Below are positions 18,946-45,770 of a stretch of DNA of 64,000 nucleotides, in pieces. This stretch comes from Micromussa lordhowensis. Lineage: Eukaryota > Cnidaria > Anthozoa > Scleractinia > Lobophylliidae. The notes beneath the pieces were generated by a model. It was not told the origin of the DNA. It saw nothing but the letters and a program-made list of their open reading frames with translations, and did no database searches. Position numbers and translations under genes: made by a program. Where the stretch lies: contig OZ026601.1 of NCBI GenBank assembly GCA_964020085.1, positions 18,396,930 to 18,460,929 on the forward strand, written 5' to 3'. Every line of letters starts with the position of its first letter. The stretch's first letter is position 1.

Positions 18946-18949
18946 AATT

Positions 18950-25675: not shown

Positions 25676-25870
25676 ACTGAACACTCTTCCAAATAAGGCA
25701 TATCTGCTACCCATAAGACTATCAGAAAGCTTATCGTACTTTTGCATTAAACCAAAGATTGCAATACCATGACTAATTCATTTCATAAGTTAATGACTCT
25801 CGTAGTTTTATTCACAGTACCTCGACTAAGTAATAAACATGTCACAAAAGCTTTTCAAATGATCACTCCT

Positions 25871-28800
25871 CTATTGCTGGCTAGAAAAGTACTTAGTAAT
25901 GCTGTTGTTACATGCTCTTTTGGTAGTTTTGGATTGCGCACTGTTTGATCGCGGCCTCTTTCCCCTTGTTTGCGAGCTGGCCTTGCCAGTTGTTGCCTTG
26001 CGTGTTCTCTCGAACGCGGTGTGACTCGTATGCCAGCTGGGTACCTGGGTGATGAAGATGTGTTCGTCGTCGTCTACTGCCTGTCCGGTGCTACAATTCT
26101 GATCACCCGTGTGGTCACCCGGATCTTCTTGCGCACACTCTTCTTCGTGCTGTGTTGCAGAGACCGACGACTCGCCAAGCTCTTCTGGGATTGGCAAGGC
26201 CGCGAACACACTCTTCACTAAATGTTCATGGCTGTTTTGGAGGACACCTAGAGACACACAGCCCCCTTTTTGTTTCTTGCAAGGCCTCGCAGGAACCGAG
26301 TGTTCCAAGGTTGCGGTGGTGGTTCTTCAACTTGTCTTCGAGGACTTCGCGGTATGCCGCCAATGACTTTTGCATCTCGGGATCGAGACAAGTGAAGATG
26401 GACTTGACGCAGTCATGTAGCTCCTTCTCCGCACTAAGTAACCAGTGGCCTTCATATGCTTTGCGTGCCTTCTCACGTCGCAACTCCTTCTGGGCCGCTT
26501 CCTGGGCATCGATGAACCTCTGGAGATCCTTTGCAATTGGACTGGGAACGGGCTCGTCTGGGTCATCGGGCACGAGGCTCAGGTTCTGGCTCGAGACGCC
26601 CTTGGCCCTAAGCAGATTCTTTCTGTGTCTGATTCGCTCTTCTCGCGACCGCTGTTCTTCGGTTCGTCTTCGTTCCTCCATCGTCAGCATCTGCTTGAGG
26701 TGTCTGCGACGCAAACTGCCTGGCTGCAGCTGCTCTATGAATCCTTGCAAGAGCTGCACACGATCTGCAGGGAAGAGACTGTTGGAATCGTGCCCCTAAG
26801 CGTCGTCTGAAATCTCCTCGTCCGTCGTCTCGTCAGCTGGTGCTTCTTTGGTCAAGAGTGCTGGTAAAGACAACGATCTTATCTCCCCCTTCTCCTCTTC
26901 CAGTAGAACACCCTCGGCCGCAGGTGATTCCTCTTCTTGGGCACTACTATCGCAACCACTCTCCGAGTCTTCGTCGTCTTTGGACGCCTTAGCCTTCTGC
27001 GCTGCCCAGACAACACAATCCATGGCGTGCTTTTTCATCCAAGCCGAAGCCTTCTTTTTTGGCTGGGACAGGCTTCGGAAGGAGTACGTTCTCAACCTCC
27101 TGTCCATAGCGGCTTGGTCGGCGGAACCGAATTTCAGCTTTTGCTGTGAGGTAATGAGCATTGGGCACCGGTTGATGAATGCTCGGGCACTTTGGTACTT
27201 CACGTCGTGAGCTGCGTACCCCCCTTGGGTGAGAATTTTCCAGTCATCAATGTCCAACGTGGTTTCCGTGGCCTCGTCTATGAATATCACTTCTGTAAAA
27301 GGCGTTATCATCGACTTGTTGAAGGCCCGTTGCTTTGTGACTGTGGCCACGTTTCCGTGATGGATGAGACCTAGAATGGGAAAGAACAAGCTGGTTTTGC
27401 CACTGTTTGCGTCTCCCACTAAGCACGGTACTTTGTCCTTGTGTCTTTTTTTATTGTAGCTGAGCAGCTTGAGGAAATCGTCACAGAATTTGGCCACCTC
27501 CTGGGGTTCGAGACTGTTTTCGAGAACCTCTCTGAAGTACTTTGGGTCAGGATCTCTCGTTGAGTCAAACGGACAAAACGCTCTGGGTGACACTTTTCCA
27601 ATCTGATGATCTTGAATAGTACCGTTCACGAAATCTCGTCTCTTGATGGACCAAAAACAGCCATTGTTGACCTCGATTAAATCATAGTCAACGGTCAGTG
27701 GCGCGAACAGTTCACAATATGGATCTGCCAAAAGATCAGTGACTTTCTTTATTTCACGTATCAGCCTACTCTTGAAGAACTCGTTCGTTGCTAAAGTGTT
27801 GACGAACGCCCTGGCCTCACATTTGTAAGAGTTAGTGTACTTCGAGCGTGAGTCTTTCTTGTACACCTTCCCTCTATAGCTGGCATAGCCTAGCCTGTTC
27901 ATTGCGATGGCGATGTCGTTGACCAAAACTGTCAGTTTGTCTGAGAGCATTTTGGATTCCACATCAGGTTCCTCGGATGAAGCAGGTGGCTCTGTACTAC
28001 CACTAGCGTTAGCAAAGCCAAATTTGTCAACGCGCAAGCCAGCTCCGATGAGTTTGTCGATTGCTCTTGCTAATGGTTGCTCAAACTGTGGGTTGACGAC
28101 GGTCAGTCGAACGACATTCTCGGTCCCGCATTCGTCTAGGTCCTGCGAGCATAATAATGATATTTCAGGGCCACCAGTACTTTGAACTTCTTTTGCGAAG
28201 CTGCTTCTGTAGGAGCACCGAACCAATTCTTCCATAAAGGGGTTTTTGTGGTCCTTTAACACCTTATATAGCTCCTTCATCGCCTCGCATTCTTTAGCCT
28301 CTACAAATGTTGCCTGATGAAAAGCAAAACAAGAAGCAGAATTGTTAATAACGATGATAGTATTATTATTAACCTGTAAACAAGCAAATCAATGAAAAGT
28401 ATGAACGAACTAATAAATGACTGGTTGGCCCACAGGCTGAATGAGTGAATGAACGAACGAACGAATGAATACGTACTTTGTTAGCTGTGACGCTAACACC
28501 ACATTTTAGCAAAGTTCTGTGAACGACTATGGGGCTCGCTGGAGCACCATTGGGCGTCGTCAAAGCCAGCCAGTAGGTTATGGCGGGACAAAGTGATTTG
28601 TTCACAAGTGCAGGGTTTCCGTCAATCCACTCTTGTGTTGTGGTGCTGGGAATTTGACTGGGGGAATCTTCATCACTCTCATCACTCTCTTCATCGTTGT
28701 CTTCATTTACCTTAGCTTTGCTTTTGGCATGTGTGCTTATAGCACTGAAGAAAAATGCCGCGGACTGAATTCCTGAAAAGAAAGAATGACAATCTCTCCG

Positions 28801-29075
28801 TATGTTTTTTTTTACAATGATTACGCCATTTATTCTAGCTTAAAATGTAAACGTCTATTTGATAAATACCAACCTGAAATGGCGGCATCACAAGGATCAC
28901 GAGTCGTGCAAATCGTCTCCCAAGATCTTTTCAAAGCCTTTTCCTTCGCGTTACAGACACATTTTGCAGTAATAATGCTGCATTTTCCCGAAACAACTGG
29001 ACTGAGAAAGCACAAAGCATTGCCCTTGATGGCCTCACTGTTTAGTTGCCTGCAAGGTTGTTTGGCACGTATCAT
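25871..29075 (-). pseudogene. SF3 helicase gene, copy 3 (one stop, one frameshift)
   Basis: Exons on the minus strand are A 28,874-29,075, B 28,477-28,772 and C 25,871-28,313; donor and acceptor positions equal those of copy 4 minus 7,998. The helicase core is open (Walker A GDANSGKTS, Walker B EVIFIDEA, motif C-like PMLITSQQ, DRRL). An in-frame TAG at 26,793-26,795 (Gln codon in copy 4) and a frame shift near 26,265 break the charged tail. The last 145 residues, ending NNSITKYF (PIP-like), are open again. A possible poly(A) signal AATAAA lies at 25,807-25,812 (minus strand). Confidence 0.88.
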
Positions 29076-29079
29076 CTTC

Positions 29080-29737
29080 GATGGCAGCGGTACAAATGAC
29101 TACAGAGAAATGGCTCCTTATATTTTGGTCGGGCACTTGTGAATTCACAAGGAATAAATCTGACAGAAAATTGCACGTTTGACCATTTTTGCACTTTCGT
29201 TTTCAATATGTCTTGAGGAACAAACTTCGAAAAAGGTGCTAATTGGAGTAGGCGCTGTCACTGCCTAATGAACGTTACGGCCTGTACAATGCTTGATCAA
29301 TACCATTCTAGTACCATGAATTGTTGTTCTTAACTGTCAGCAACTAGAGAAAGCACAAGGAATCTCTCTCGCAAAAAATGCATACTGTACTGTCACAATG
29401 ATGGGAGTTACGTTTCTTAAAATTAACACTGTTCCATTGTTTCGAACTCTGCAGTGATGGCTGCAGTGATGGCTATCCTGCTTCTTCAGGGAATAAATCT
29501 GGTGGTCAAGAACTTTCTGGAATATTCTTCGTTTGTCTGTTTTTGCAAATTCAGAGAAAGGTGCGAATTCCACTCAAACTACAAGAACAGTGGTGCTTCG
29601 GTGATGAAGACAGGAACGAAAGTTGCTTGAAAATGTGATGTGCAGTTGATAATGCAAAATTTTTAAGTAGATATTTGGCTCTTTGGCTCATGATAAATAC
29701 AAACCTATACAACCAAGTATCGCTGAGGTGAACATAA
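29080..29737. other. 5' flank of helicase exon A, copy 3
   Basis: No gene is visible. This probably holds the promoter of the helicase gene. A 12-base tandem, CTGCAGTGATGG, occurs near 29,450. The region is duplicated almost unchanged in copy 4 at 37,080-37,735. Confidence 0.4.
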
Positions 29738-30505
29738 TATATCCTTGTTTCCGTCCATTCCGTGTTATCTGTCTTTTCCGTTTATAAAAAGAGAGTTTTG
29801 CATTGGAAATGCATCCCAATTGGAATCATACACACTGCAAGTTTCCCTGCACCGTAAAACCTTTTCAAAAACAAGCGGAAAGTACTGATCTCACGGATTT
29901 CACGGAAGCTGAATATATTATCATGAACTTCTTCTCTTACCTACTGTAAGTATCACCCAAAAGTAATATATTATTTATTTTAATATATTTTTATTGATTA
30001 CTTACAGTAAGAAAAAGAAGTTAAAGTAGTTAATATATTCTTGTTTCCGTCCATTCCGTGATGTCTGTCTTTTCCGTTGTTAAAAAAAGAGTTTGCATTG
30101 TAAATGCATTCCAATTGGAATCGTACGCACTGCAAGTTATCCTGCATCCCAAAACCTTTTTTAAAAACAAGCGGAAAGTACTGATCTCACGGATTTCGCG
30201 GAAACTGAATATATATCATGAACCTCTTCTCTTACCTACTGTAAGTATCGTCAAGAAATAATATATTATTTATTTCAATATATTTTTACTGATTACTTAC
30301 AGTAAGAAAGAGAAGTTAAAGAAGATGACATATTCTTGTTACCGTCCATTCCGTGATGTCTGTCTTTTCCGTTGATAAAAAAAGGGTTTGCATCTTAAAT
30401 GCATTCCAATTTGGAATCGTACGCCTGCAAGTTTCCCTGCACCCAAAACCGTTCTAAAAACAAGCAGAAAGTACTGACTTCACGGATTTCGCGGAAAACT
30501 AAATA
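29738..30505. repeat. Three hairpin repeats (~296-bp period), right end of copy 3
   Basis: Units start at about 29,738, 30,034 and 30,330 with TTGTTTCCGTCCATTCCGTG or a variant. Each has an inner AATGCATTCCAATT-type near-palindrome and AAGCGGAAAGTACTGATC. The first two have a hairpin whose arms read TCTTACCTACTGTAAGTA and TACTTACAGTAAGAAAAAG around an AT-rich loop of about 55 bases. The third unit is shorter and lacks the hairpin. Confidence 0.88.
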
Positions 30506-30784
30506 CATTCATCTCTTTCTCTCTATAATTCTATGATTTTAACCATTACATCCAGGAACGTTTAAAAGCAAAGGGAACGGGGACATTTGGGAAACGATCT
30601 TCTACATTTCCCAAAATTTTATTATTGCGCGTTTTGCTGCCTTTGAGCGGAACAAACTTCACCAAATTTTAATGATGGTTTCCATTTCTCCTAAGCGCAT
30701 GACTAACGCTTTTTGGAGTTTTTCTTTAGTCGTTTTCTCGTTTTTTCACTGATTTTAAGTTTCGTTGGCTGTTCCTATATTCCA

Positions 30785-30800
30785 AAAAGGAACGTTCCTC
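30785..30800. promoter_or_regulatory. Conserved palindrome AGGAACGTTCCT in left end
   Basis: A perfect 12-bp palindrome at about 30,787-30,798. The same word lies in the left end of copies 1 (about 6,139), 2 (about 12,650), 3 (about 21,919), 5 (about 38,786) and 6 (about 46,357), always between CTGTTCC(T/G)AT and GACTGTTCCTCG. Its half-site GGAAC/GTTCC is the one used in the iterons, so it is probably a binding site for an element protein. That role is inferred. Confidence 0.6.
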
Positions 30801-30905
30801 TAGTATCGACTGTTCCTCGTTTTTGTGTTCCTATTGACCATAAGAGGACCAGATTTTTTGCAAGGTAGGAACAAAACGTTCACTCTAGTGTAAAAGAAGA
30901 ACATT

Positions 30906-31715
30906 TAGTTCCGAGTTCCCAACTGTAAATGGAACACATTGTTCCCAAATTGGTCAATCAGGACTGTTTTGTTCCGAGTTCCTATCTGTGAATGGAACGC
31001 GTTGTTCCCAAATTGGTCACTTAGGACTGTTTAGTTCCCAGTTCCTATCTGTGAATGGAACACATTGTTCCCAAATTGGTCATTGAGGACTGTTTTGTTC
31101 CGAGTTCCTATCTGTAAAGGGAACACATTGTTCCCAAATTGGTCATTTAGGACTGTTTTGTTCCGAGTTGCTATCTGTAAATGGAACACATTGTTCCCAA
31201 ATTGGTCATTTAGGACTGTTTTGTTCCGAGTTCCTATCTGTGCATTGAACACATTGTTCCCAAATTGGTCATTTAGGACTGTTTTGTTCCGAGTTCCTAT
31301 CTGTAAAGGGAACACATTGTTCCGAAATTGGTCATTTAGGACTGTTTTGTTCCGAGTTCCTATCTGTAAATGGAACACATTGTTCCCAAATTGGTCATTT
31401 AGGACTGTTTTGTTCCGAGTTCCTATCTGTGCATTTAACACATTGTTCCCAAATTGGTCATTTGGGACTGTTTTGTTCCGAGTTCCTATCTGTAAATGGA
31501 AAACATTGGTCCCAAATTGGTCATTTAGGACTGTTTTGTTCCGAGTTCCTATCTGTAAAGGGAACACATTGTTCCGAAATTGGTCATTTAGGACTGTTTT
31601 GTTCCGAGTTCCTATTTGTGAATGGAACACATTGTTCCCAAATTGGTCATTTGGGACTGTTTTGTTCCGAGTTCCTATCTGTTAATGGAACACATGGTTC
31701 CCAAATTCCGAATTG
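30906..31715. repeat. 63-bp GGAAC iteron array, copy 4 (~13 units)
   Basis: Regular 63-bp units with GGAACACATTGTTCC from about 30,928 onward. The last unit is altered (GGAACACATGGTTCCC then AAATTCCGAATTGCTG), exactly as in copies 2 and 5, marking a defined right edge of the array about 240 bases before the recombinase ATG. A 5-base word in the second unit reads GCGTTG instead of CATTG; copy 5 shares it, copy 3 does not. Confidence 0.95.
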
Positions 31716-31949
31716 CTGATTTGGCATTCCTATTTTGTTTCCACATCGAGGTGTCTTTTTTGAATGGATCAAGCAATAGGGCACGCACAGACCTGCTTGG
31801 GCAAGTTTGGTTGCATCTTACTGTCATGAATTTTGCACAATGGTAATGAGGGCGGGCAAGTAAGGGCATGCCTTGGCAAATACAAACATATATGCAGTTC
31901 GTTTATTTGTCAACGGTTCCTGTGGGCCAAGTGTTCTTAAAAGGGTAAA

Positions 31950-33674
31950 ATGAGCAAGAAGTGCAAAGTGAATTGGTCGGATATCGATGGAGCGGCACCA
32001 AAACCAAAACGCCTTCACTTGGAAAAGGATGAAACTGACAGTTTGTATCACTGCCCAATACAAGAGTGTGACCATGATGGATTTCAAAGTCAAAGAGGTT
32101 GCAGAAAACATGTTAACACCAAGCACAGTTGGTTCTTTTACTTTGATGAAAAGCCCAATTCGAAAGAAATCACAGATTCGCTAAAGTTAGCAAGCAATGT
32201 TCCAATAGAGAGCACAATTCAAGATCGAACAAGGGAGACAACAAAGCACGCCGTAAAGTTACTTCCCTCATTTTTATTATCTTCTGACATTGGCAAAGTA
32301 TTTACGAAATGGCTGACTGGAAGTGGTGGCGGTTACAAGAAAGATCGTGCAGCCCAACAAATAGTTAAAAGGTGCTTTAAGTTTCTTAGATTTTGTTGTG
32401 AAGACGAGGAAGAGTTGACTATTGACGTGGTGGACTTTAGTTTGTGTTCTCCAAATTTGTTGTTCAAGTTTATCGACTACTTACAAGACGAATGCAAGCT
32501 CGGCCATGGTGGGCGTTTGGGCTACATAGATGCTATTTCTGAAATTATCGACTTCAGAAAACTTCATGGCGCATCAGAGGCAGTCTTTCAAAAGTTCTCT
32601 GCAACAGAGTTGTACCTCAAAAGAGCGCGAAAGACAGTCGCAAAGATGATGCGATTGCAGTGGACACAAGATTTAGACATTGAGACACTGGAAGCAAGAG
32701 GCCACTGGGCAACAATGGAAGAGCTGTTGGAGGTCGTGAAATTCCATCTGCCGCGCTACGAAAATACTGTGAAGACTTGCAAATCGAGTCCAGCTCAAGT
32801 GAACCCTTCAGACCTGACATTTGCCACGAAATTTGTAGCCATGTATCTGTTCATCAAAGTGAAGGGGTCACGTCCCATGACTTATCAATATTTGACGCTG
32901 GACATGATTGCTACAGCTAAGGAAAAGGGTGGATTCATTGATCAGAAAACGTTCAAGACTGCTGGAAAGTATGGATTTGATTCTTTGATTCTGACCGATG
33001 CAAACATGCAAGTGCTCAACGGCTACATCTCGTACGTTAGACCTTTGCTTAAACCCCAGTGGGATTTCGTTCTCGTCAACAGAAATGGCGACCAGCATGG
33101 TAAATTGGGCGAGATCATGAGCAAACTGGTGTTTGATGCAATTGGAAAATACATTCATCCCACACGTTATCGCCAAATTGTTGAAACCCAAAGCCTCAAT
33201 CAGCTCACTAGTGAGGAGCAAAGGGTTTTGTCAGAAGACCAAAAACACAGCTCTGCCGTTGCTAAAGTTCACTATCAAAAGCAACGATCCCGTGAAGTTG
33301 CTTTGAAGGGTCACGAGTGCCTACAGAAACTTCAAGGTGCCAAGGGTTCAGAAGTGGACGAGGACGTCCACGCAAGACTCGGAGATTCGACGTGCGAGGC
33401 CGGGCCTTCAGTTGAAAGAGTGCAAAATATCAGCTCCTCCCCCAAAAAGGAGGCCCTGCCTAAAAGAATCTTGCGCTCTCAGAGCAACATTCGTCATGTT
33501 TTGAAATTCACAACAGAAGAGGACGATTTTTTAAAGAAAGGGATAACTAAACACGGATTTGGACAGTGGACTGCTATTTTGAGAGACCATGATTTCGAAT
33601 TTCAAGACGGAAGAACGGCAGACTCTCTAAAGAAAAGGGCGGGACTCAAATTTTCATCGGGGCCACGCACCTGA
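31950..33674 (+). CDS. C2H2 - tyrosine recombinase - Myb protein (intact, 574 aa)
   Basis: Open from ATG 31,950 to TGA 33,672-33,674. Residues 35-59 form a C2H2-type finger (C35, C40, H54, H59). Residues 135-300 are helical and would be the core-binding part. The catalytic domain follows tyrosine recombinase order: R308 in GSRPMTYQYLT, Lys candidates 333/336/340 in the hairpin, HxxR as H403-P-T-R406, H433 in QKHSSAVAKV, and nucleophile Y442 in VHYQK. Residues 519-563 form a Myb/SANT domain of the telobox type (FTTEEDDFLKKGI, GFGQWTAIL, RTADSLKKR). The expected role is strand cleavage and joining at element ends, as in Cryptons; fusion of a finger and a Myb domain is unusual. The frame is uninterrupted, unlike all other copies here. 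The upstream 235 bases are conserved in copies 2-5 and probably hold the promoter. Confidence 0.88.
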   Translation: MSKKCKVNWSDIDGAAPKPKRLHLEKDETDSLYHCPIQECDHDGFQSQRGCRKHVNTKHSWFFYFDEKPNSKEITDSLKLASNVPIESTIQDRTRETTKHAVKLLPSFLLSSDIGKVFTKWLTGSGGGYKKDRAAQQIVKRCFKFLRFCCEDEEELTIDVVDFSLCSPNLLFKFIDYLQDECKLGHGGRLGYIDAISEIIDFRKLHGASEAVFQKFSATELYLKRARKTVAKMMRLQWTQDLDIETLEARGHWATMEELLEVVKFHLPRYENTVKTCKSSPAQVNPSDLTFATKFVAMYLFIKVKGSRPMTYQYLTLDMIATAKEKGGFIDQKTFKTAGKYGFDSLILTDANMQVLNGYISYVRPLLKPQWDFVLVNRNGDQHGKLGEIMSKLVFDAIGKYIHPTRYRQIVETQSLNQLTSEEQRVLSEDQKHSSAVAKVHYQKQRSREVALKGHECLQKLQGAKGSEVDEDVHARLGDSTCEAGPSVERVQNISSSPKKEALPKRILRSQSNIRHVLKFTTEEDDFLKKGITKHGFGQWTAILRDHDFEFQDGRTADSLKKRAGLKFSSGPRT

Positions 33675-33805
33675 ACTGAACACTCTTCCAAATACGGCAT
33701 ATCTGCTACCCATAAGACTATCAGAAAGCTTATCGCACTTTTGCATTAAACCAAAGATTGCAATACCATGACTAATTCATTTCATAAGTTAATGACTCTC
33801 GTAGT

Positions 33806-33811
33806 TTTATT
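33806..33811 (-). terminator. Possible poly(A) signal of helicase gene, copy 4
   Basis: AATAAA on the minus strand, about 60 bases past the helicase stop at 33,870. It is conserved in copy 3 at 25,807-25,812. Confidence 0.45.
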
Positions 33812-33869
33812 CACAGTACCTCGACTAAGTAATAAGCATGTCACAAAAGCTTTTCAAATGATCACTCCT

Positions 33870-36800
33870 CTATTGCTGGCTAGAAAAGTACTTAGTAATG
33901 CTGTTGTTACATGCTCTTTTGGTAGTTTTGGATTGCGCACTGTTTGATCGCGGCCTCTTTCCCCTTGTTTGCGAGCTGGCCTTGCCAGTTGTTGCCTTAC
34001 GTGTTCTCTCGAACATGGTGTGACTCGTATGCCAGCTGGGTACCTGGGTGATGAAGATGTGTTCGTCGTCGTCTACTGCCTGTCCGGTGCTACAATTCTG
34101 ATCACCCGTGTGGTCACCCGGATCTTCTTGCGCACACTCTTCTTCGTGCTGTGTTGCAGAGACCGACGACTCGCCAAGCTCTTCTGGGATTGGCAAGGCC
34201 GCGAACACACTCTTCACTAAATGTTCATGGCTGTTTTGGAGGACACCTAGAGACACACAGACACGTTTCCTTTCTTGCAAGGCCTCGCAGGAACCGAGTG
34301 TTCCAAGGTTGCGGTGGTGGTTCTTCAACTTGTCTTCGAGGACTTCGCGGTATGCCGGCAATGACTTTTGCATCTCGGGATCGAGACAAGTGAAGATGGA
34401 CTTGACGCAGTCATGTAGCTCCTTCTCCGCACTAAGTAACCAGTGGCCTTCATATGCTTTGCGTGCCTTCTCACGTCACAACTCCTTCTGGGCCGCTTCC
34501 TGGGCATCGATGAACCTCTGGAGATCCTTTGCAATTGGACTGGGAACGGGCTCGTCTGGGTCGTCGGGCACGAGGCTCAGGTTCTGGCTCGAGACGCCCT
34601 TGGCCCTAAGCAGATTCTTTCTGTGTCTGATTCGCTCTTCTCGCGACCGCTGTTCTTCGGTTCGTCTTCGTTCCTCCATCGTCAGCATCTGCTTGAGGTG
34701 TCTGTGACGCAAACTGCCTGGCTGGAGCTGCTCTATGAATCCTTGCAAGAGCTGCACACGATCTGCAGGGAAGAGACTGTTGGAATCGTGCCCCTGAGCG
34801 TCGTCTGAAATCTCCTCGTCCGTCGTCTCGTCAGCTGGTGCTTCTTTGGTCAAGAGTGCTGGTAAAGACAACGACCTTATCTCCCCCTTCTCCTCTTCCA
34901 GTAGAACACCCTCGGCCGCAGGTGATTCCTCTTCTTGGGCACTACTATCGCTACCACTCTCCGAGTCTTCGTCGTCTTTGGACGCCTTAGCCTTCTGCGC
35001 TGCCCAGACAACACAATCCATGGCGTGCTTTTTCATCCAAGCCGAAGCCTTCTTTTTTGGCTGGGACAGGCTTCGGAAGGAGTACGTTCTCAACCTCCTG
35101 TCCATAGCGGCTTGGTCGGCGGAACCGAATTTCAGCTTTTGCTGTGAAGTAATGAGCATTGGGCACCGGTTGATGAATGCTCGGGCACTTTGGTACTTCA
35201 CGTCGTGAGCTGCGTACCCCCCTTGGGTGAGAATTTTCCAGTCATCAATGTCCAACGTGGTTTCCGTGGCCTCGTCTATGAATATCACTTCTGTAAAAGG
35301 CGTTATCATCGACTTGTTGAAGGCCCGTTGCTTTGTGACTGTGGCCACGTTTCCATGATGGATGAGACCTAGAATGGGAAAGAACAAGCTGGTTTTGCCA
35401 CTGTTTGCGTCTCCCACTAAGCACGGTACTTTGTCCTTGTGTCTTTTTTTATTGTAGCTGAGCAGCTTGAGGAAATCGTCACAGAATTTGGCCACCTCCT
35501 GGGGTTCGAGACTGTTTTCGAGAACCTCTCTGAAGTACTTTGGGTCAGGATCTCTCGTTGAGTCAAACGGACAAAACGCTCTGGGTGACACTTTTCCAAT
35601 CTGATGATCTTGAATAGTACCGTTCACGAAATCTCGTCTCTTGATGGACCAAAAACAGCCATTGTTGACCTCGATTAAATCATAGTCAACGGTCAGTGGC
35701 GCGAACAGTTCACAATATGGATCTGCCAAAAGATCAGTGACTTTCTTTATTTCACGTATCAGCCTACTCTTGAAGAACTCGTTCGTTGCTAAAGTGTTGA
35801 CGAACGCCCTGGCCTCACATTTGTAAGAGTTAGTGTACTTCGAGCGTGAGTCTTTCTTGTACACCTTCCCTCTATAGCTGGCATAGCCTAGCCTGTTCAT
35901 TGCGATGGCGATGTCGTTGACCAAAACTGTCAGTTTGTCTGAGAGCATTTTGGATTCCACATCAGGTTCCTCGGATGAAGCAGGTGGCTCTGTACTACCA
36001 CTAGCGTTAGCAAAGCCAAATTTGTCAACGCGCAAGCCAGCTCCGATGAGTTTGTCGATTGCTCTTGCTAATGGTTGCTCAAACTGTGGGTTGACGACGG
36101 TCAGTCGAACGACATTCTCGGTCCCGCATTCGTCTAGGTCCTGCGAGCATAATAATGATATTTCAGGGCCACCAGTACTTTGAACTTCTTTTGCGAAGCT
36201 GCTTCTGTAGGAGCACCGAACCAATTCTTCCATAAAGGGGTTTTTGTGGTCCTTTAACACCTTATATAGCTCCTTCATCGCCTCGCATTCTTTAGCCTCT
36301 ACAAATGTTGCCTGATGAAAAGCAAAACAAGAAGCAGAATTGTTAATAACGATGATAGTATTATTATTAACCTGTAAACAAGCAAATCAATGAAAAGTAT
36401 GAACGAACTAATAAATGACTGGTTGGCCCACAGGCTGAATGAGTGAATGAACGAACGAATGAATGAATACGTACTTTGTTAGCTGTGACGCTAACACCAC
36501 ATTTTAGCAAAGTTCTGTGAACGACTATGGGGCTCGCTGGAGCACCATTGGGCGTCGTCAAAGCCAGCCAGTAGGTTATGGCGGGACAAAGTGATTTGTT
36601 CACAAGTGCAGGGTTTCCGTCAATCCACTCTTGTGTTGTGGTGCTGGGAATTTGACTGGGGGAATCTTCATCACTCTCATCACTCTCTTCATCGTTGTCT
36701 TCATTTACCTTAGCTTTGCTTTTGGCACGTGTGCTTATAGCACTGAAGAAAAATGCCGCGGACTGAATTCCTGAAAAGAAAGAATGACAATCTCTCCGTA

Positions 36801-37073
36801 TGTTTTTTTTTACAATGATTACGCCATTTATTCTAGCTTAAAATGTAAACGTCTATTTGATAAATACCAACCTGAAATGGCGGCATCACAAGCATCACGA
36901 GTCGTGCAAATCGTCTCCCAAGATCTTTTCAAAGCCTTTTCCTTCGCGTTACAGACACATTTTGCAGTAATAATGCTGCATTTTCCCGAAACAACTGGAC
37001 TGAGAAAGCACAAAGCATTGCCCTTGATGGCCTCACTGTTTAGTTGCCTGCAAGGTTGTTTGGCACGTATCAT
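33870..37073 (-). pseudogene. SF3 helicase gene, copy 4 (single premature TGA)
   Basis: Exons: A 36,872-37,073 (start MIRAKQPCRQLN, Cys-rich), B 36,475-36,770 (acidic Ser stretch, then YWLALTTPNGAP), C 33,870-36,311. Splice sites are TTCAG/GTTGGT, TTTTCAG, AACAAA/GTACGT and CATCAG, and phases agree. Counting from the internal Met at 36,278: Walker A GDANSGKTS 289-297, Walker B VIFIDEA 331-337, a DDWKILTQGG segment, motif C-like PMLITSQQ 373-380, and Arg finger candidates DRR 393-395. An acidic and coiled tail (about 435-790) follows, with C-terminal NNSITKYFSSQQ, PIP-like. This is an SF3 ATPase of the E1/NS1-like class, known in DNA tumour viruses and parvoviruses as replicative helicases. 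The only break is a TGA at 34,476-34,478 (CGA in copy 3, a CpG change). It lies after the helicase domain, so a truncated helicase lacking the PIP motif could still be made. Confidence 0.85.
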
Positions 37074-37079
37074 CTTCGA

Positions 37080-37735
37080 TGGCAGCGGTACAAATGACTA
37101 CAGAGAAATGGCTCCTTATATTTTGGTCGGGCACTTGTGAATTCACAAGGAATAAATCTGACAGAAAATTGCACGTTTGACCATTTTTGCACTTTCGTTT
37201 TCAATATGTCTTGAGGAACAAACTTCGAAAAAGGTGCTAATTGGAGTAGGCGCTGTCACTGCCTAATGAACGTTACGGCCTGTACAATGCTTGATCAATA
37301 CCATTCTAGTACCATGAATTGTTGTTCTTAACTGTCAGCAACTAGAGAAAGCACAAGGAATCTCTCTCGCGAAAAATGCATACTGTACTGTCACAATGAT
37401 GGGAGTTACGTTTCTTAAAATTAACACTGTTCCATTGTTTCGAACTCTGCAGTGATGGCTGCAGTGATGGCTATCCTGCCTCTTCAGGGAATAAATCTGG
37501 TGGTCAAGAACTTTCTGGAATATTCTTCGTTTGTCTGTTTTTGCAAATTCAGAGAAAGGTGCGAATTCCACTCAAACTACAAGAACAGTGGTGCTTCGGT
37601 GATGAAGACAGGAACGAAAGTTGCTTGAAAATGTGATGTGCAGTTGATAATGCAAAATTTTTAAGTAGATATTTGGCTCTTTGGCTCATGATAAATACAA
37701 ACCTATACAACCAAGTATCGCTGAGGTGAACATAA
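37080..37735. other. 5' flank of helicase exon A, copy 4
   Basis: Near-identical duplicate of 29,080-29,737. No gene seen; presumed promoter region of the helicase gene. Confidence 0.4.
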
Positions 37736-38503
37736 TATATCCTTGTTTCCGTCCATTCCGTGTTATCTGTCTTTTCCGTTTATAAAAAGAGAGTTTTGCA
37801 TTGGAAATGCATTCCAATTGCAATCATACACACTGCAAGTTTCCCTGCACCGTAAAACCTTTTCAAAAACAAGCGGAAAGTACTGATCTCACGGATTTCA
37901 CGGAAGCTGAATATATTATCATGAACTTCTTCTCTTACCTACTGTAAGTATCACCCAAAAGTAATATATTATTTATTTTAATATATTTTTATTGATTACT
38001 TACAGTAAGAAAAAGAAGTTAAAGTAGTTAATATATTCTTGTTTCCGTCCATTCCGTGATGTCTGTCTTTTCCGTTGTTAAAAAAAGAGTTTGCATTGTA
38101 AATGCATTCCAATTGGAATCGTACGCACTGCAAGTTATCCTGCATCCCAAAACCTTTTTTAAAAACAAGCGGAAAGTACTGATCTCACGGATTTCGCGGA
38201 AACTGAATATATATCATGAACCTCTTCTCTTACCTACTGTAAGTATCGTCAAGAAATAATATATTATTTATTTCAATATATTTTTACTGATTACTTACAG
38301 TAAGAAAGAGAAGTTAAAGAAGATGACATATTCTTGTTACCGTCCATTCCGTGATGTCTGTCTTTTCCGTTGATAAAAAAAGGGTTTGCATCTTAAATGC
38401 ATTCCAATTTGGAATCGTACGCCTGCAAGTTTCCCTGCACCCAAAACCGTTCTAAAAACAAGCAGAAAGTACTGACTTCACGGATTTCGCGGAAAACTAA
38501 ATA
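37736..38503. repeat. Three hairpin repeats, right end of copy 4
   Basis: Same three ~296-bp units as at 29,738-30,505, offset by 7,998, with only isolated base changes (for example near 37,810 and 37,820). Confidence 0.9.
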
Positions 38504-38904
38504 CATTCATCTCTTTCTCTCTATAATTCTATGATTTTAACCATTACATCCAGGAACGTTTAAAAGCAAAGGGAACGGGGACATTTGGGAAACGATCTTC
38601 TACATTTCCCAAAATTTTATTATTGCGCGTTTTGCTGCCTTTGAGCGGAACAAACTTCACCAAATTTTAATGATGGTTTCCATTTCTCCTAAGCGCATGA
38701 CTAACGCTTTTTGGAGTTTTTCTTTAGTCGTTTTCTCATTTTTTCACTGATTTTAAGTTTCGTTGGCTGTTCCTATATTCCAAAAAGGAACGTTCCTCTA
38801 GTATCGACTGTTCCTCGTTTTTGTGTTCCTATTGACCATAAGAGGACCAGATTTTTTGCAAGGTAGGAACAAAACGTTCACTCTAGTGTAAAAGAAGAAC
38901 ATTT

Positions 38905-40196
38905 AGTTCCGAGTTCCCAACTGTAAATGGAACACATTGTTCCCAAATTGGTCAATCAGGACTGTATAGGTATAGGTATAGGTATAGGTATAGGTTTATT
39001 AAAGATTCATATAGCAGCCTCTAAGGCTGAATTGCATGAAATTACAGTATAATTGTATAAATGCAAATTGTAAAAAATTATGTAATATATGCTATAAATA
39101 CTAAAAATATAAATTCTAAAAAATTTATAACCATAATAACTAACTAATACTAAAACAGCTCAGTAGCACAGCAGCTCAGTAGCGTCTGCACATTGATGTT
39201 ATGAAAGTTGATGAAAAACGCTTAGTGCGCGTGGCTGGATTGACAAATTTCCGCGGATTACGAAGATTATATTTACAAGTGAACGTTGGTGGGAGGAGTT
39301 GATGTAGCTTGTGATCTGGATTATTTACAATGGATTCGAAAAATTTGTTGCATTGATTTGAACATCTGTGTTCTAAAGATACCATATTGTACAACAGTAG
39401 GCTTTCGCTATAGGACAAGCCTGGCGTGATAATTGCTAGTGCACGCCGTTGTTCCGAGTTCCTATCTGTGAATGGAACGCGTTGTTCCCAAATTGGTCAC
39501 TTAGGACTGTTTTGTTCCCAGTTCCTATCTGTGAATGGAACACATTGTTCCCAAATTGGTCATTGAGGACTGTTTTGTTCCGAGTTCCTATCTGTAAAGG
39601 GAACACATTGTTCCCAAATTGGTCATTTAGGACTGTTTTGTTCCCAGTTGCTATCTGTAAATGGAACACATTGTTCCCAAATTGGTCATTTAGGACTGTT
39701 TTGTTCCGAGTTCCTATCTGTGCATTTAACACATTGTTCCCAAATTGGTCATTTAGGACTGTTTTGTTCCGAGTTCCTATCTGTAAAGGGAACACATTGT
39801 TCCGAAATTGGTCATTTAGGACTGTTTTGTTCCGAGTTCCTATCTGTAAATGGAACACATTGTTCCCAAATTGGTCATTTAGGACTGTTTTGTTCCGAGT
39901 TCCTATCTGTGCATTTAACACATTGTTCCCAAATTGGTCATTTGGGACTGTTTTGTTCCGAGTTCCTATCTGTAAATGGAAAACATTGGTCCCAAATTGG
40001 TCATTTAGGACTGTTTTGTTCCGAGTTCCTATCTGTAAAGGGAACACATTGTTCCGAAATTGGTCATTTAGGACTGTTTTGTTCCGAGTTCCTATCTGTG
40101 AATGGAACACATTGTTCCCAAATTGGTCATTTGGGACTGTTTTGTTCCGAGTTCCTATCTGTTAATGGAACACATGGTTCCCAAATTCCGAATTGC
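38905..40196. repeat. 63-bp GGAAC iteron array, copy 5, split by LINE
   Basis: One unit at 38,905-38,964 and about twelve at 39,450-40,196. The unit order and variants match copy 4, including the GCGTTG variant and the altered terminal unit, so the array was copied as a block. The intervening 480 bases are a LINE fragment. Confidence 0.93.
38965..39449 (-). mobile_element. 5'-truncated LINE, minus strand, (CCTATA)n tail
   Basis: The minus-strand frame 39,418-39,176 encodes the extreme C-terminus of a non-LTR retrotransposon ORF2 (LEHRCSNQCNKFFESI, then HKLHQLLPP and YNLRNPRK). The 3' tail on that strand is AATAAACCTATACC followed by CCTATA repeats (plus-strand TATAGG, 38,965-38,996). It interrupts the first iterons of copy 5 and is absent in copies 3 and 4, so it came after the duplication. 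No clear target duplication. Confidence 0.8.
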
Positions 40197-40429
40197 TGAT
40201 TTGGCATTCCTATTTTGTTTCCACATCGAGGTGTCTTTTTTGAATGGATCAAGCAATAGGGCACGCACAGACCTGCTTGGGCAAGTTTGGTTGCATCTTA
40301 CTGTCATGAATTTTGCACAATGGTAATGAGGGCGGGCAAGTAAGGGCATGCCTTGGCAAATACAAGCATATATGCAGTTCGTTTATTTGTCAACGGTTCC
40401 TGTGGGCCAAGTGTTCTTAAAAGGGTAAA

Positions 40430-42145
40430 ATGAGCAAGAAGTGCAAAGTGAATTGGTCGGATATCGATGGAGCGTCACCAAAACCAAAACGCCTTCACTT
40501 GGAAAAGGATGAAACTGACAGTTTGTATCACTGCCCAATACAAGAGTGTGACCATGATGGATTTCAAAGTCAAAGAGGTTGCAGAAAACATGTTAACACC
40601 AAGCACAGTTGGTTCTTTTACTTTGATGAAAAGCCCAATTCGAAAGAAATCACAGATTCGCTAAAGTTAGCAAGCAATGTTCCAACAGAGAGCACAATTC
40701 AAGATCGAACAAGGGAGACAACAAAGCACGCCGTAAAGTTACTTCCCTCATTTTTATTATCTTCTGACATTGTCGAAGTATTTACGAAATGGCTGACTGG
40801 AAGTGGTGGCGGTTACAAGAAAGATCGTGCAGCCCAACAAATAGTTAAAAGATGCTTTAAGTTTCTTAGATTTTGTTGTGAAGACGAGGAAGAGTTGACT
40901 TTTGACGTGGTGGACTTTAGTTTGTGTTCTCCAAATTTGTTGTTCAAGTTTATCGACTACTTACAAGACGAATGCAAGCTCGGCCATGGTGGGCGTTTGG
41001 GCTACATAGATGCTATTTCTGAAATTATCGACTTCAGAAAACTTCATGGCGCATCAGAGGCAGTCTTTCAAAAGTTCTCTGCAACAGAGTTGTACCTCAA
41101 AAGAGCGCGAAAGACAGTCGCAAAGATGATGCGATTGCAGTGGACACAAGATTTAGACATTGAGACACTGGAAGCAAGAGGCCACTGGGCAACAATGGAA
41201 GAGCTGTTGGAGGTCGTGAAATTCCATCTGCCGCGCTACGAAAATAACGTGAACATTTGCAAATCAAGTCCAGCTGAAGTTAACACCTCAGACTTGACAT
41301 TCGCCACGAAGTTTGTAGCCATGTATCTGTTCATCAAAGTGAAGGGGTCACGTCCCATGACCTATCAATATTTGACGGTGAACACGATTGCTACTGCTAA
41401 GGAAAAGGGTGGATTCATTGATCAGGAAACGTTCAAGACTGCTGGAAAATATGGATTTGATTCTTTGATTCTGACCGATGCAGATATTTAAGTACTCAAT
41501 GGCTACATCTCGTACGTTAGACCTTTGCTTAAACCCCAGTGTAATTTCGTTCTTGTCAACAGAAATGGAGGTCAACATGGTAAATTGAGGGAGATTATGA
41601 GCAAGCTGGTGTTTGATGCAATTGGAAAGTACATCCATCCCACGCGTTATCGCCAAATTGTTGAAATGCAGAGCCTTAATGAGCTCACTAGCGAGGAGCA
41701 GAGGATTTTGTCAGAAGACCAAAAACACAGTTCTGCTGTTGCTAAAGTGCACTATCAAAAGAAACGATCCCGAGAAGTTGCTTTGAAGGGTCACGAGTGC
41801 ATACAGAAACTTCAAGGTGCCAAGGGTTCAGAAGTGGACGAGGACGTCGACGCAAGACTCGGAGAGTCGACGTCCGAGGCCGGGCCTTCAGTTGAAAGAG
41901 AGCAAAATATCAGCTCCTCCCCCAGAAAGGACGCCCTGCCTAAAAGAATCTTGTGCTCTCAGACAAACATTTGTCGTGTTTTGAAATTTACAACAGAAGA
42001 GGACGAATTCCTAAAGAAAGGTATAACTAAGCACGGTTTTGGACAGTGGACTGCTATTTTGAGAGATGATGATTTCTAATTTCAAGATGGAAGAACAGCC
42101 GATTCTCTAAAGAAAAGAGCTGGAATGAAAATGCCCCTAGCTTAA
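40430..42145 (+). pseudogene. Tyrosine recombinase-Myb gene, copy 5 (two stops)
   Basis: ATG 40,430, intact C2H2 finger and catalytic R-box (GSRPMTYQYLT), then TAA at 41,489-41,491 where the other copies have CAA (Gln of MQVLNG). The remainder is open with HPTR, KHSS and VHYQKK, then a second CAA-to-TAA stop at 42,077-42,079 inside the Myb domain, and the natural TAA at 42,143-42,145. Up to 41,246 it is nearly identical to copy 4; beyond that it is divergent. The first stop removes HxxR and the nucleophile, so the gene is dead. Confidence 0.88.
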
Positions 42146-42399
42146 GAAAGTTAATCAAATCTAAAAATGCAGGAATGTGTAACACTTGGTGCGAAATAAC
42201 TGCTCCCAGGGCTAAAGAAAAGGGTGGCCTCAAAATACCGCTGGCTTGACACTAGGGGACATGTACCCACGAGGAAACAGTTACATTCGAGGGTGTCATA
42301 AAGAGGTCTACCTCTTCGCCGTCCTCCATTTCTTCACAAGGGAAGGGTAGGGGGCACCAGATACTGTTTATGCATTCTGCTTGGGACGGGGAAACTCAT

Positions 42400-43565
42400 T
42401 GCATCTCAACGGCCATGCACTTCTTGTTTTTGAAATTTTAACTTCAGCGCTTCGACAGTCACCTCCAGCATGTATTGGAGTGCACGCTGTCGTCCGTCAC
42501 TGCATCCTCTTTTCTCTGGAGGTCTCGAAGCTCTCTTTCTTTCTCCATGATCCACCCATTTTTGAAGTATTCGCGCGCTTTCTTTTCGAGCATCCTCTGG
42601 TCTTCTTGTTTCTTCCACCTAAAGTATTCATCCCTTGACTGCTCTATATTTGGATCGTACGAGCCGGTCACCGTCTGCAGCAAGTGCGCATCTTCTTCCT
42701 TCAACATTCCCAGTGAGATCCACCGTTCCTTGGTTTCCTCCAGCACGCGCAATCGTGCGTGCCCTTCCTGGCGTTCCCGTTCATCGATGGTGCATTTTAC
42801 TTCAGTGGCGAGTAGACCAAGTTGCCTCTGCTTGAGACTGTGGCATGGCTCTTGTACTTGCAGACGTGCTATATTTTTCAGACTCTCCTCCCATGGGTCC
42901 AAATAGGTCGAATCAGGGTTCGACACTTTGCTCTCTCCCTCCACACTACTATCTTCTATGACTGTATTCGTATCCGTTGGCTCACTCCCTTCTTGCTCGC
43001 TTTCGCTTTCGTCTAGTTGCATGTTTCTAATCCGTTCTTTTTCTTCCTCCTCGATGTCACCTTGCTGTACACTGGCCCCAGGCATGGGAGGTGGTAATTC
43101 ATCGTCTGGAGTGATCGTAATGCTACATGCTCATACAACACAGTCCATTGCATTGGTTTGCAAGAATTCTTGTACTCCTGCTACACGCGGCGATGTCAAG
43201 CGTTTGAAGAAGAACTTTTTTAAGCGAACAGCCATGGCGTCATTGTGCTCCCGGCCAAAATCCATGTCCGTCTGACACGTTATAAACATTGGGCATCTTA
43301 TGACTGCTAGACTTGACGTCTTGTACTTGCGGTCGTGTGCAGTGAGCCCTCCTTGCATCAGTATTTTCCAGTCATCTGGATCCATCAGCTTTGCGTATGC
43401 CTCGTCTAGAAAGATTATTTGCGTGTTTTCATCGACCAAGCTCTTGTTAAAAGCCTTCTGTTTACTGATCATGGCAATGTATCTTGCTGGGATGAAACGG
43501 GTGATTGGCGTGAAAAGGCTCGTTTTTCCACTGTTAGGCCCATAGGTTTTGCATCTTTCCAACAC
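42400..43565 (-). pseudogene. SF3 helicase fragment, copy 5
   Basis: The minus strand begins at the Walker A motif, YGPNSGKTS (about 43,535). Then come TKQKAF-like SKQKAFNKSL, Walker B IIFLDEA, DDWKILMQGG, motif C-like PMFITCQT and NAMDCVV, with a TGA at about 43,129-43,131. The charged tail continues in the same frame from about 43,128 to 42,459, then shifts frame near 42,500. The N-terminal half of the protein and the C-terminal PIP region are missing. The 43,566-43,791 minus-strand frame upstream is not clearly homologous to exon A apart from RQLN. Confidence 0.8.
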
Positions 43566-43799
43566 TCCATTGTATCTTAGTTTGACTGGTTAAGACCAGT
43601 AAGCGATGTACAATTTCATTCCCGGTATGGTACATTTTAAGCCGAATATTCCTTAATGCGTTCACTGAAAGAATTGGCAGCAGTTTGTCTTCCTTAACTT
43701 GCTTAATTAAAACTAGCGAAGAAGGAATATCAAATCTTGTACACACCTTATTATTCAGTTGTCTTGCTGGCACTGTGGCCATGACTGTCACCGAGTGAA

Positions 43800-44730
43800 A
43801 TAAGAATGAAGTAGTTTTTCAGTTTACTTTTATAGCATGATAGTTAGATTGTTAAAATTCCTCAGTGTGGTCTATTGTTTTCGATCAATTCCTGGCAAAG
43901 AAAGCTGCAACAGTGCAAAACACAAACACTCAGACAATTGGTGCAGAAACCAAACAACAAACAAAGGCCAGAAAATTTACCGTGATTATGTAATGGATGT
44001 AATCAAATTCTTTTCATTAACGTTGGTCAAACGCAAACATAGTTGTGTTTGAAGTTCACTAACAGTGCAGAATTAGGCATTAATCAAATGTATCATTGCG
44101 ACAGTTTGCTTTAAAATGTGGATTTTCCTTTGCACTTTAAGTGTAGTTTAGTAGGAGCATTCTTTGTTCAATTAACGCAAGCAGTTTAAAAGGCCAAGCA
44201 GTTTGTACATGCTTCATTGTCAAAGAATTCAAAGAGAAAGATTTTTTTATGATTTAAAAATCTGTTTGTACGTTTTCTTTAAAACATGCAAAACAAGCAT
44301 GACTTTTCGTTGGTATGTCATTGTGGATTACTTCTCCTTGGAAAGAAGTGCACTAATAAAGAATCTGGAAAACACCTTGCAGCGCAAACAAGACATGCAT
44401 ACCAGCACATGATCAATGCCTTAAAAGCATGTAACCTGAATACTTTAGCAGAGAACAAGTAGCCTTAAGATCAAGGAAAACACTTTGAAATATCAAGGAG
44501 CTAATATTTGACAGGATAATAAATTTCTGTGACACAATCCTAAATTGATAGTTGTCCCCGGTGTATCCGTGGCATCCGTCACACTATAATGAGGTCACGC
44601 TAAATAAAAAGAGCAAAAACGAATAGCGACTTAAACAGCTCAAAAGACCGCTCCCCGCTGTCTCCATCATATCCGTCACACTCAACAATCAACTGGATTT
44701 GTAGTCTTAAGATCTCAAGTATTACGGGGG
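43800..44730. other. Non-coding gap after copy 5
   Basis: AT-rich DNA without a recognisable gene. From about 44,560 it holds GTATCCGTGGCATCCGTCAC-like words that introduce the foldback block. Confidence 0.4.
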
Positions 44731-44734
44731 GTAG

Positions 44735-45052
44735 CGGATATAACGGGGAAAGAACTTACAGTACATCAGATCTGCTTCAAGGAGCATAAATAAGATTTAA
44801 TTAACTACGATGGAGATGACGGATATGGGGGGAAAGACTTACAGTGCATTAGATCTGCTTTAAGGAATATATTACTACTACTAATACTAGAAGTAGTAGT
44901 AGTAGTAGTAGTGATATATTCCTTAAAGCAGATCTAATGCACTGTAAGTCTTTCCCCGCCATATCCGTCATCTCTATCGTACTTATTAAAATCTTATTTA
45001 TGCTCCTTCAAGCAGATCTTATGTACTGTAATTCTTTGCCCCGTACTAAGTA
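44735..45052. repeat. Large foldback, ~140-bp arms around TAC/GTA repeats
   Basis: Left arm about 44,735-44,873 pairs with right arm about 44,913-45,052 with few mismatches. The inner 65 bases are nearly perfect: GAGATGACGGATATGG, then AAAGACTTACAGTGCATTAG and ATCTGCTTTAAGGAATATAT. The loop is TACTACTACTAATACTAGAAG followed by GTAGTAG repeats. A third partial copy of the arm begins at 45,052 and is cut by the TTAA MITE. Confidence 0.9.
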
Positions 45053-45108
45053 CGATGGAGATGACGGATATGGCGGGTCAACACATACAGTGCATTAGAT
45101 CTGATTAA

Positions 45109-45540: not shown

Positions 45541-45557
45541 TTAAAGGAATATATCAG

Positions 45558-45559
45558 TT

Positions 45560-45597
<38 letters not shown>

Positions 45598-45770
45598 GTT
45601 GCTGCTACCGCTACCGCTACCCCTACCGCTACCGCTACCGCTACCGCTACCGCTACCGCTACCGCTACCGCTACCGCTACCGCTACCGCTACCGCTACAG
45701 CTACTGCTACTGTTACTGCTACTGCTACTGCTACTGCTACTGCTACTACTAGTAGTAGTAGTAGTAGTGA
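45558..45770. repeat. (TAC)n / (CTACCG)n / (TACTGC)n compound microsatellite
   Basis: Runs of CTA triplets, then about 15 CTACCG hexamers, then TACTGC and ACTAGTAG runs. Flanked by foldback-arm sequence (GATATATTACTTAAAGCAGATC). Long Tyr/Arg or Leu/Pro frames across it are artefacts. Confidence 0.95.

What the first reader, a model, noticed from the sequence alone, without database searches (positions are those of the whole stretch)
30574..38571. Candidate new mobile element: tyrosine recombinase plus SF3 helicase
Seen: one ~8-kb unit encodes a plus-strand protein with a full tyrosine recombinase residue set (R308, HxxR 403-406, H433, Y442) and a convergent spliced gene with SF3 Walker A, Walker B and motif C-like segments. 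The same pair occurs in copies 2, 3 and 5. Known: Cryptons carry a tyrosine recombinase without a helicase; DIRS elements carry one with a reverse transcriptase; SF3 helicases belong to viruses and Rep-type replicons. I know of no named eukaryotic element with recombinase plus SF3. Inference: a DNA element that integrates by recombinase and replicates with its own helicase.
Basis: partly seen in the sequence, partly recalled or inferred. Interest (0 to 1): 0.95.

Follow-up and report, generated by a model that had tools for sequence, protein, structure and literature searches.

The report
Coral integrating element with replication helicase
A coral-like genome carries many copies of an 8-kb mobile DNA that appears to insert itself as a circle using its own recombinase and also carries its own replication helicase, a pairing I found described for viruses and prokaryotic elements but not for a capsid-less animal element.

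Summary
Unit 30574-38571 is one copy in a head-to-tail array and encodes a plus-strand recombinase-like protein and a convergent, spliced SF3 helicase. Genome-wide, 39 of 76 merged recombinase loci have a convergent helicase within 6 kb. Element ends abut in arrays as two 12-bp inverted arms (10/12 match) around an 8-bp spacer, the layout of a tyrosine-recombinase site; 26 junctions genome-wide, 0 in the control. Of seven solo copies, five share a 4-7-bp core with the spacer, one only 2 bp, one none; two sit in minisatellites with uninterrupted units beside them, so no target duplication beyond the core. The recombinase keeps R-K-(H/N)xxR-H-Y across 77 sequences, but no profile recognises it and structure prediction was off. 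Helicase relatives match SF3 families weakly; 62 of 72 end in a PCNA-binding-like motif. No capsid or reverse transcriptase was found in the frames scanned. Helicase types are saturated at synonymous sites while adjacent recombinases differ by dS 0.13-0.28: modules were shuffled. Best reading: an animal integrative, plasmid-like element; integration well supported, replication inferred.

The parts
30585..30616 (+). Junction of right end of unit 3 and left end of unit 4: inverted arms 30585-30596 and 30605-30616 around an 8-bp spacer 30597-30604 (same at 21719-21750 and 38583-38614)
30600..30903 (+). Left end of the element up to the repeats
30904..31707 (+). 63-bp tandem repeats (12.8 copies); the consensus unit carries GTTCCCAAA, 8 of 9 bases of the att arm; possible iterons or accessory recombinase sites (inferred)
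31950..33674 (+). Tyrosine-recombinase-like gene: N-terminal C2H2-like finger (by eye), catalytic region with R311 K339 H406xxR409 H436 Y445 (numbering of P0001, which starts 3 residues before the Met), C-terminal Myb/TRF-like domain
33873..36311 (-). SF3 helicase gene, last exon (approximate 5' border), ending in a PCNA-binding-like tail; in-frame stop at 34476-34478 in this copy
36475..36770 (-). SF3 gene, middle exon (approximate borders, counted by hand)
36870..37073 (-). SF3 gene, first exon (approximate borders; matches the N-terminus of Oculina models by eye)
37728..38510 (+). 295-bp tandem repeats near the right end
38572..38597 (+). Right end of unit 4: GGAACGGGGACATTTGGGAAACGATC
5955..12437 (+). 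Unit 1: decayed recombinase 6537-7941, no helicase found
12438..21707 (+). Unit 2: broken recombinase 13237-14865, diverged helicase 18004-15281 (-), nested inverted-repeat transposon 19084-21304
21708..30573 (+). Unit 3: recombinase 23126-25672 interrupted at about 23240-24047, helicase 28235-25874 (-); 99.4% identical to unit 4 over 6.5 kb
38572..46144 (+). Unit 5: recombinase 40421-42133 with stops, helicase remnant 43589-42462 (-) of another type
46145..46896 (+). Unit 6: left-end fragment only

Best explanation
This is an autonomous DNA mobile element of about 8 kb from a cnidarian genome that works like an integrative plasmid. Its recombinase, a tyrosine-recombinase-like enzyme with its own zinc-finger and Myb DNA-binding parts, joins the two element ends into a circle and inserts the circle by conservative crossover in an 8-bp spacer between inverted arms, at genomic sites sharing only a few bases with the spacer. 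Insertion into a resident copy's junction gives the head-to-tail arrays. The convergent SF3 helicase probably melts an origin on the element (perhaps at the 63-bp repeats) and recruits host PCNA through its C-terminal motif, so that the circle is copied before re-insertion. Shown by sequence: ends, site anatomy, arrays, uninterrupted targets, pairing, constraint on the recombinase. Inferred: circle, catalysis, origin, replication, PCNA binding.
For: Pairing: 40 of 76 merged recombinase loci have a helicase within 6 kb, 39 of them convergent; 30 of 52 loci clusters have a convergent pair; chance per locus about 0.0016 assuming uniform placement. Of 14 loci (of 76, chosen by me mainly from the best matches) whose downstream DNA was fetched, 13 were readable and 12 of 13 carry the helicase on the opposite strand. 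Site: 12-bp arms matching 10/12 around 8 bp; 8 of 20000 random window 32-mers do as well; 26 junctions genome-wide with up to 2 mismatches, 14 with none, control 0. Core of 4-7 bp shared with the spacer in 5 of 7 solo copies, read by eye. Residues: R311, K339, H436, Y445 in 77 of 77, R409 in 76 of 77; shuffled conserved letters give the pattern in 91 of 20000. Recombinase dN/dS median 0.18 over the 142 of 171 pairs with dS above 0.02. Helicase: members of A1 match DUF5906 (28 of 37, best 1.2e-6), Parvo_NS1 (22 of 37, best 1e-4), PPV_E1_C (13 of 37, best 6e-7) at E up to 0.1. PCNA-like tail in 62 of 72 long helicases, shuffled mean 0.9, maximum 6.
Against: No library recognises the recombinase: Pfam and PDB profiles hit only its Myb end and some zinc-finger models (one search shows 25 of 54 families); hhalign against 5 integrases of the same genome found nothing, with the shallow and the deep alignment. 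The first H of HxxR is N in 37 of 77. 36 of 76 recombinase loci show no helicase and 21 of 62 helicase loci no recombinase within 6 kb; this is a lower bound, since L041 has a helicase that one search did not list. A 4.0-kb recombinase-only copy has both ends (L042), and the C11 array shows no other frame of 80 aa behind the recombinase. Of seven solo copies one gives no clear core and one only 2 bp. The right end was found in 9 of the 14 fetched stretches. 20 of 37 helicase members also match the GTPase model MMR_HSR1 (best 9e-4), and the profile finds no SF3 structure in the PDB (15 listed, best E 0.62). No circle, transcript or activity was seen. Co-location in other species rests only on shared contig lengths.
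Confidence: 0.76

Rival explanations
1. A Crypton-like recombinase transposon in which the helicase is a passenger: mobility needs only the recombinase, and the helicase serves something else or came with a swapped right-hand module.
For: L042 and the 4556-bp-period array on C11 carry the recombinase without a recognisable helicase; helicase types are saturated (pS 0.83-0.90) while recombinases differ by dS 0.13-0.28, so the helicase side is exchangeable.
Against: The convergent layout recurs at 30 of 52 loci clusters; the two stretches read from 5.5-kb arrays (L058, L059) keep a helicase exon, so they look like deletion derivatives; swapped modules still bring a helicase of the same family.
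Confidence: 0.2
2. Remnant or satellite of a small circular DNA virus: the SF3 gene is a viral replication protein and the element was, or is, packaged with capsids supplied by a helper.
For: The helicase resembles viral SF3 families; SF3 plus tyrosine recombinase is known in polinton-like viruses and virophages (passages); a preprint reports papillomavirus-like Rep genes apparently integrated in sea anemones (passages).
Against: No capsid match among 9 of the 10 other frames of 110 aa or more in the unit (31824-32180 was not given); the longest of them are frames of the 63-bp repeats. No relative confirmed in viral contigs by two scans or of the helicase in phages; no PHROGs match for five proteins.
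Confidence: 0.15
3. The plus-strand protein is not a recombinase; the arrays come from unequal crossing-over of a locus and the copies spread by another, trans-acting enzyme.
For: No profile hit to a recombinase family.
Against: Invariant R-K-R-H-Y at recombinase-like spacing; ends form a recombination site whose spacer holds the crossover core; the window's array mixes different right-hand modules joined at the same site.
Confidence: 0.06

Closest known systems
Crypton transposons (CryptonA/CryptonI of animals; PMC3212892, passages)
   Same: DNA element with a tyrosine recombinase and no reverse transcriptase; inferred circular intermediate; no terminal inverted repeats
   Different: This recombinase does not match DUF3504 (PF12012), which scores 150 loci in the same genome, none of them one of the 79 listed matches of this family (lists compared by eye); it has a zinc-finger-like N-terminus and a C-terminal Myb domain, whereas the paper says animal Cryptons have no C-terminal domain and no terminal repeats; it carries an SF3 helicase gene
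Polinton-like viruses and Sputnik-type virophages with tyrosine recombinase (PMC4642659, PMC12220804, passages)
   Same: Recombinase plus SF3 helicase domain, integration into eukaryotic genomes, circular donor inferred
   Different: Those carry capsid genes and are larger (PLVs 14-40 kb by the abstract of PMC12220804); this unit has two recognisable genes in 8 kb and no capsid match
Prokaryotic integrated elements with tyrosine integrase and S3H replication protein (thaumarchaeal elements, PMC6563490, passages; P4-like satellites, recalled)
   Same: Same two functions; tandem arrays by re-use of the site are described there
   Different: Prokaryotic; in the passages S3H is fused to or accompanied by a primase; no sequence match found here (PHROGs, phages)
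DIRS/Ngaro/PAT retroelements (PMC4157794, passages)
   Same: Tyrosine recombinase, circular intermediate
   Different: Reverse transcriptase is defining there; none matched in the frames scanned
Nimavirus telomere-site recombinases (PMC10871703, passages) and fungal Starship/Enterprise elements (recalled; Enterprise named in PMC10871703)
   Same: The nimaviral recombinases also carry a C2H2 domain; Starships are recombinase elements with further genes
   Different: Large DNA viruses, and giant fungal elements; relation of the recombinases not tested here

Membership tests
Tyrosine recombinase | R-K-HxxR-H/W-Y catalytic set at conserved spacing | tested here: met
   first H is N in 37 of 77. 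Spacing ranges recalled. Four of five own-genome integrases (two of them near-identical) also fit, L008 does not
Tyrosine recombinase | Recombination site of inverted arms around a 6-8-bp spacer | tested here: met
   definition from PMC3212892
Tyrosine recombinase | Profile homology to a known recombinase family | tested here: not met
Tyrosine recombinase | Catalytic-domain fold | not testable with these tools
   structure prediction switched off
Crypton | Crypton/DUF3504-type recombinase | tested here: not met
   PF12012 does not hit P0001 and is not among the 25 of 54 families shown for A3; its 150 own-genome hits lie elsewhere
Crypton | Element encodes only a recombinase (plus peptidase in some) | tested here: not met
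   SF3 gene in 12 of 13 readable fetched stretches; L042 has none
SF3 helicase | Walker A, Walker B and motif C in order | tested here: met
   motif C ends in Q instead of N (motif consensus recalled)
SF3 helicase | Profile match to SF3 families | tested here: met
   by database members; the window's own pieces are weak (Parvo_NS1 0.012, PPV_E1_C 7e-4), and no PDB match
Virophage / polinton-like virus | Capsid and packaging genes | tested here: not met
   one frame not scanned and spliced genes in the last 1.5 kb not excluded
DIRS/Ngaro | Reverse transcriptase | tested here: not met

The most novel reading that the evidence does not exclude
A new superfamily of animal mobile elements: capsid-less integrative plasmids that excise as circles, replicate by their own SF3 initiator helicase with host PCNA, re-integrate by a new family of zinc-finger/Myb tyrosine recombinases, and swap helicase modules behind a common integration module as phages do.
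Probability: 0.55. Interest if true: 0.9.

Novelty: new variant of a known kind. Interest (0 to 1): 0.82.

Why it matters
In one published scheme eukaryotic DNA elements with a tyrosine recombinase (Crypton, TEC) have only that domain (PMC4157794, passages); some Cryptons add a peptidase (PMC3212892), and fungal Starships carry cargo (recalled). An animal element that brings a replicative helicase would fill the gap between transposons, plasmids and small DNA viruses, and would offer a source or sink for SF3 Rep genes. Near-identical copies (98-99% recombinase identity) make excision circles and replication testable now.

Tried and rejected
hhalign of the recombinase against five own-genome integrases: nothing with the shallow alignment or the deep one. 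PDB and Pfam profile searches: Myb/TRF, SLIDE and zinc-finger families, no recombinase among those shown. Viral contigs: no relatives confirmed. PHROGs and phages: none; NCBIfam: three weak, unrelated matches. Rfam over 30500-46900: none. Other frames of the unit in Pfam: only weak matches of repeat frames and one of the first helicase exon, to unrelated models. A census of right ends by pattern did not complete. The idea that all recombinase-only forms are deletion products was kept only for L058 and L059 (exon recognised by eye); L042 and the C11 array are open.
Full report
What was checked. The window is G000:C7:18396930-18460929 of a 580.8-Mb genome in 1383 contigs. Named relatives of the helicase gene come from stony corals (Oculina, Montipora, Acropora, Porites, Desmophyllum), so the host is probably a coral or close to one. 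The genome itself is unnamed. The finding lies in a head-to-tail array of five units and a left-end fragment, starting at about 5955, 12438, 21708, 30574, 38572 and 46145. Units 3 and 4 are 99.4% identical over 6.5 kb.

The two genes. The recombinase frame 31941-33674 gives P0001. Pfam sees only a C-terminal Myb domain (2.6e-6) and an overlapping CHD1 model; PDB searches link this end to telomere-repeat-binding factors (TRF2 2.2e-4; TRF1 2.3e-7). The N-terminal C2H2 finger is read by eye. On the minus strand lies an SF3-like gene. Its last exon is cut by an in-frame stop at 34476-34478 in this copy. Other copies and database proteins are open: P0127 has 787 aa, and the C24 copy in L060 is an open frame of 809 residues. 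Two upstream exons are supported by coral gene models such as P0156, 912 aa; their borders here are approximate.

Is it a tyrosine recombinase? Three homology searches gave near relatives of the recombinase (938 proteins at E<=0.001 among 7999 scored candidates, the best 120 listed, all at 84% identity or more), helicase relatives (248, 120 listed) and, with a length-shifted query, distant recombinase relatives, mostly at 40-68% identity, including the hydrozoan Clytia (136, 120 listed). I aligned 77 sequences: P0001, two near relatives and 74 of the 116 newly listed distant ones. R311, K339, H436 and Y445 are the same in 77 of 77, R409 and R411 in 76 of 77, and position 406 is H in 40 and N in 37. 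R to K is 28, K to R409 70, R409 to H 27, and H to Y exactly 9. Of five integrases from the same genome, four (two of them near-identical) have the W at the same distance of 9 from the Y and fit the pattern, and the fifth (L008) does not; for single sequences this test is lenient. Shuffling the letters over the conserved columns of the alignment gave the full pattern in 91 of 20000; I set the spacing ranges from recalled recombinases. Against this, no profile comparison finds a recombinase family (in one search, 25 of 54 families are shown), and structure prediction could not be run. The call therefore rests on residues plus DNA evidence.

The DNA evidence. Solo copies show the ends. The right end is GGAACGGGGACATTTGGGAAACGATC followed by unrelated flank (L039, L040 with one mismatch, L042, L043, L044, L046; variants in L050 and L051); in L047 it is followed by a left end. 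In the other five of the 14 stretches no right end was found (L041, L045, L049, L052) or the stretch is withheld (L048). The left end is TTCTACATTTCCCAAAATT or CTATACATTTCCCAAAATT; it was not found in several of the loci compared, some cut short, and is missing in L040. In arrays the two ends abut, ATTTGGGAAACG-ATYYTMTA-CATTTCCCAAAA: arms match 10 of 12 as inverted repeats around 8 bp. Of 20000 random window 32-mers, 8 do as well. The pattern with up to 2 mismatches occurs 26 times in the genome, 14 without mismatch, and the reversed control 0. PMC3212892 (passages) gives 11-13-bp inverted repeats and a 6-8-bp segment as the typical site. For seven solo copies I compared both junctions by eye. 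Cores shared with the spacer are TCTTC (C2:37522099), ATTCTAT (C3:14784832), ATCC (C5:25691467), TCCT (C8:5308804), ATCT (C1:10874002) and only TC (C8:30404773, no better than weak); C3:8255510 gives no clear core and its two flanks look unrelated. The C2 and C3:14784832 copies sit in minisatellites whose neighbouring units show the uninterrupted target. So insertion is conservative, without target duplication beyond the core. This is what recombinase-mediated integration of a circle leaves.

Pairing. Own-genome searches list 79 recombinase and 73 helicase matches (both lower bounds). Merged to 76 and 62 loci, 40 recombinase loci have a helicase within 6 kb, 39 of them convergent; 38 of the 40 gaps are 0.77-1.76 kb, the others 0.28 and 4.0 kb. 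30 of 52 clusters hold a convergent pair; the chance per locus is about 0.0016 under uniform placement. Of 12 clusters with more than one recombinase, 10 have all on one strand; the two mixed ones change strand across gaps of 25 and 67 kb. I read downstream stretches of 14 of the 76 recombinase loci: 1 is withheld, 12 of the other 13 carry the helicase, and L042 does not. L058 and L059, from 5.5-kb arrays, keep only an exon of the helicase gene, recognised by eye by comparison with L060. In other assemblies three contig lengths (81048, 441454, 831635) occur in both protein lists, which suggests co-location but does not prove it.

Module exchange. Relative to unit 4, recombinases of 18 other copies differ by dS 0.01-0.28. 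dN/dS is 0.15-0.60 in these comparisons, and its median is 0.18 over the 142 of 171 pairs with dS above 0.02, so they are under constraint. Helicases fall into types. In 3 comparisons within a type pS is 0.00-0.01; in 9 between types it is 0.83-0.90 with 38-69% protein identity. Four copies are in both sets (L046, L049, L050, L051): their recombinases differ from unit 4 by dS 0.13-0.28, their helicases are saturated. Protein constraint cannot explain this difference at synonymous sites. The left module (ends, 63-bp repeats, recombinase) must have been exchanged or homogenised across helicase lineages; the similarity of other types to unit 4 breaks at about unit position 3077, just before the recombinase stop.

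How it probably works. Excision and insertion: recombinase at the att site, with zinc finger and Myb as added DNA binding (inferred). Replication: the helicase belongs by motif and family matches with SF3 initiators, although 20 of 37 members also match a GTPase model (best 9e-4) and no SF3 structure is found by profile. Of 72 helicase proteins of at least 740 aa among the 120 listed, 62 have a [ILVM]xx[YF][YF] motif within the last 20 residues; shuffled tails average 0.9, maximum 6. 13 of 72 have the canonical Q (PCNA-box consensus recalled). This points to recruitment of the host sliding clamp. The 63-bp repeat unit carries an arm-like GTTCCCAAA (8 of 9; 91 of 5000 shuffled units do so), and the repeats may be the origin or accessory sites. 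No circle or replication has been seen. Other frames of the unit (9 of the 10 further ones of 110 aa or more) match no capsid or reverse transcriptase.

Known relatives and novelty. The recombinase family is not Crypton by profile: PF12012 scores 150 loci in this genome and none of these copies is among them (lists compared by eye); likewise the 145 loci of PF00589. Polinton-like viruses and virophages (PMC4642659, PMC12220804; passages) and thaumarchaeal elements (PMC6563490; passages) combine a tyrosine recombinase with SF3, with capsids or in prokaryotes. Ten full-text searches of the open library listed no capsid-less animal element with the pair that I could recognise from titles, abstract starts and passages of seven papers. 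Most subscription papers, bioRxiv and Repbase were not searched. I therefore call it a new variant of recombinase DNA elements, and think it may deserve a superfamily of its own.

Noticed in passing
window 19084-21304: A 445-bp, 98% inverted repeat flanks a 526-codon open frame (19526-21106 +): probably a DNA transposon nested in unit 2.
   Followed up: no
window 23240-24047: An insertion of about 0.8 kb splits the recombinase of unit 3.
   Followed up: no
C-terminus of P0001, residues 522-566: The Myb domain is closest in the PDB to telomere repeat binding factors TRF1/TRF2; any telomere link of the element is untested.
   Followed up: partly
G000 genome-wide: 150 scored DUF3504 (Crypton-type) loci and 145 scored Phage_integrase loci, so this genome is rich in several recombinase families.
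   Followed up: partly
window 3690-3949, 61950-62451, 63512-64000: 138-bp and 168-bp tandem repeats outside the array.
   Followed up: no
left flanks of L014 and L036, and the DNA just left of unit 1 at window 5926: Insertions recur in pyrimidine-rich minisatellites (CCTCC / CTTCC), a possible target preference.
   Followed up: partly
window 43131-43133: In unit 5 a stop sits where unit 4 has Trp in the helicase; that copy is also truncated.
   Followed up: no
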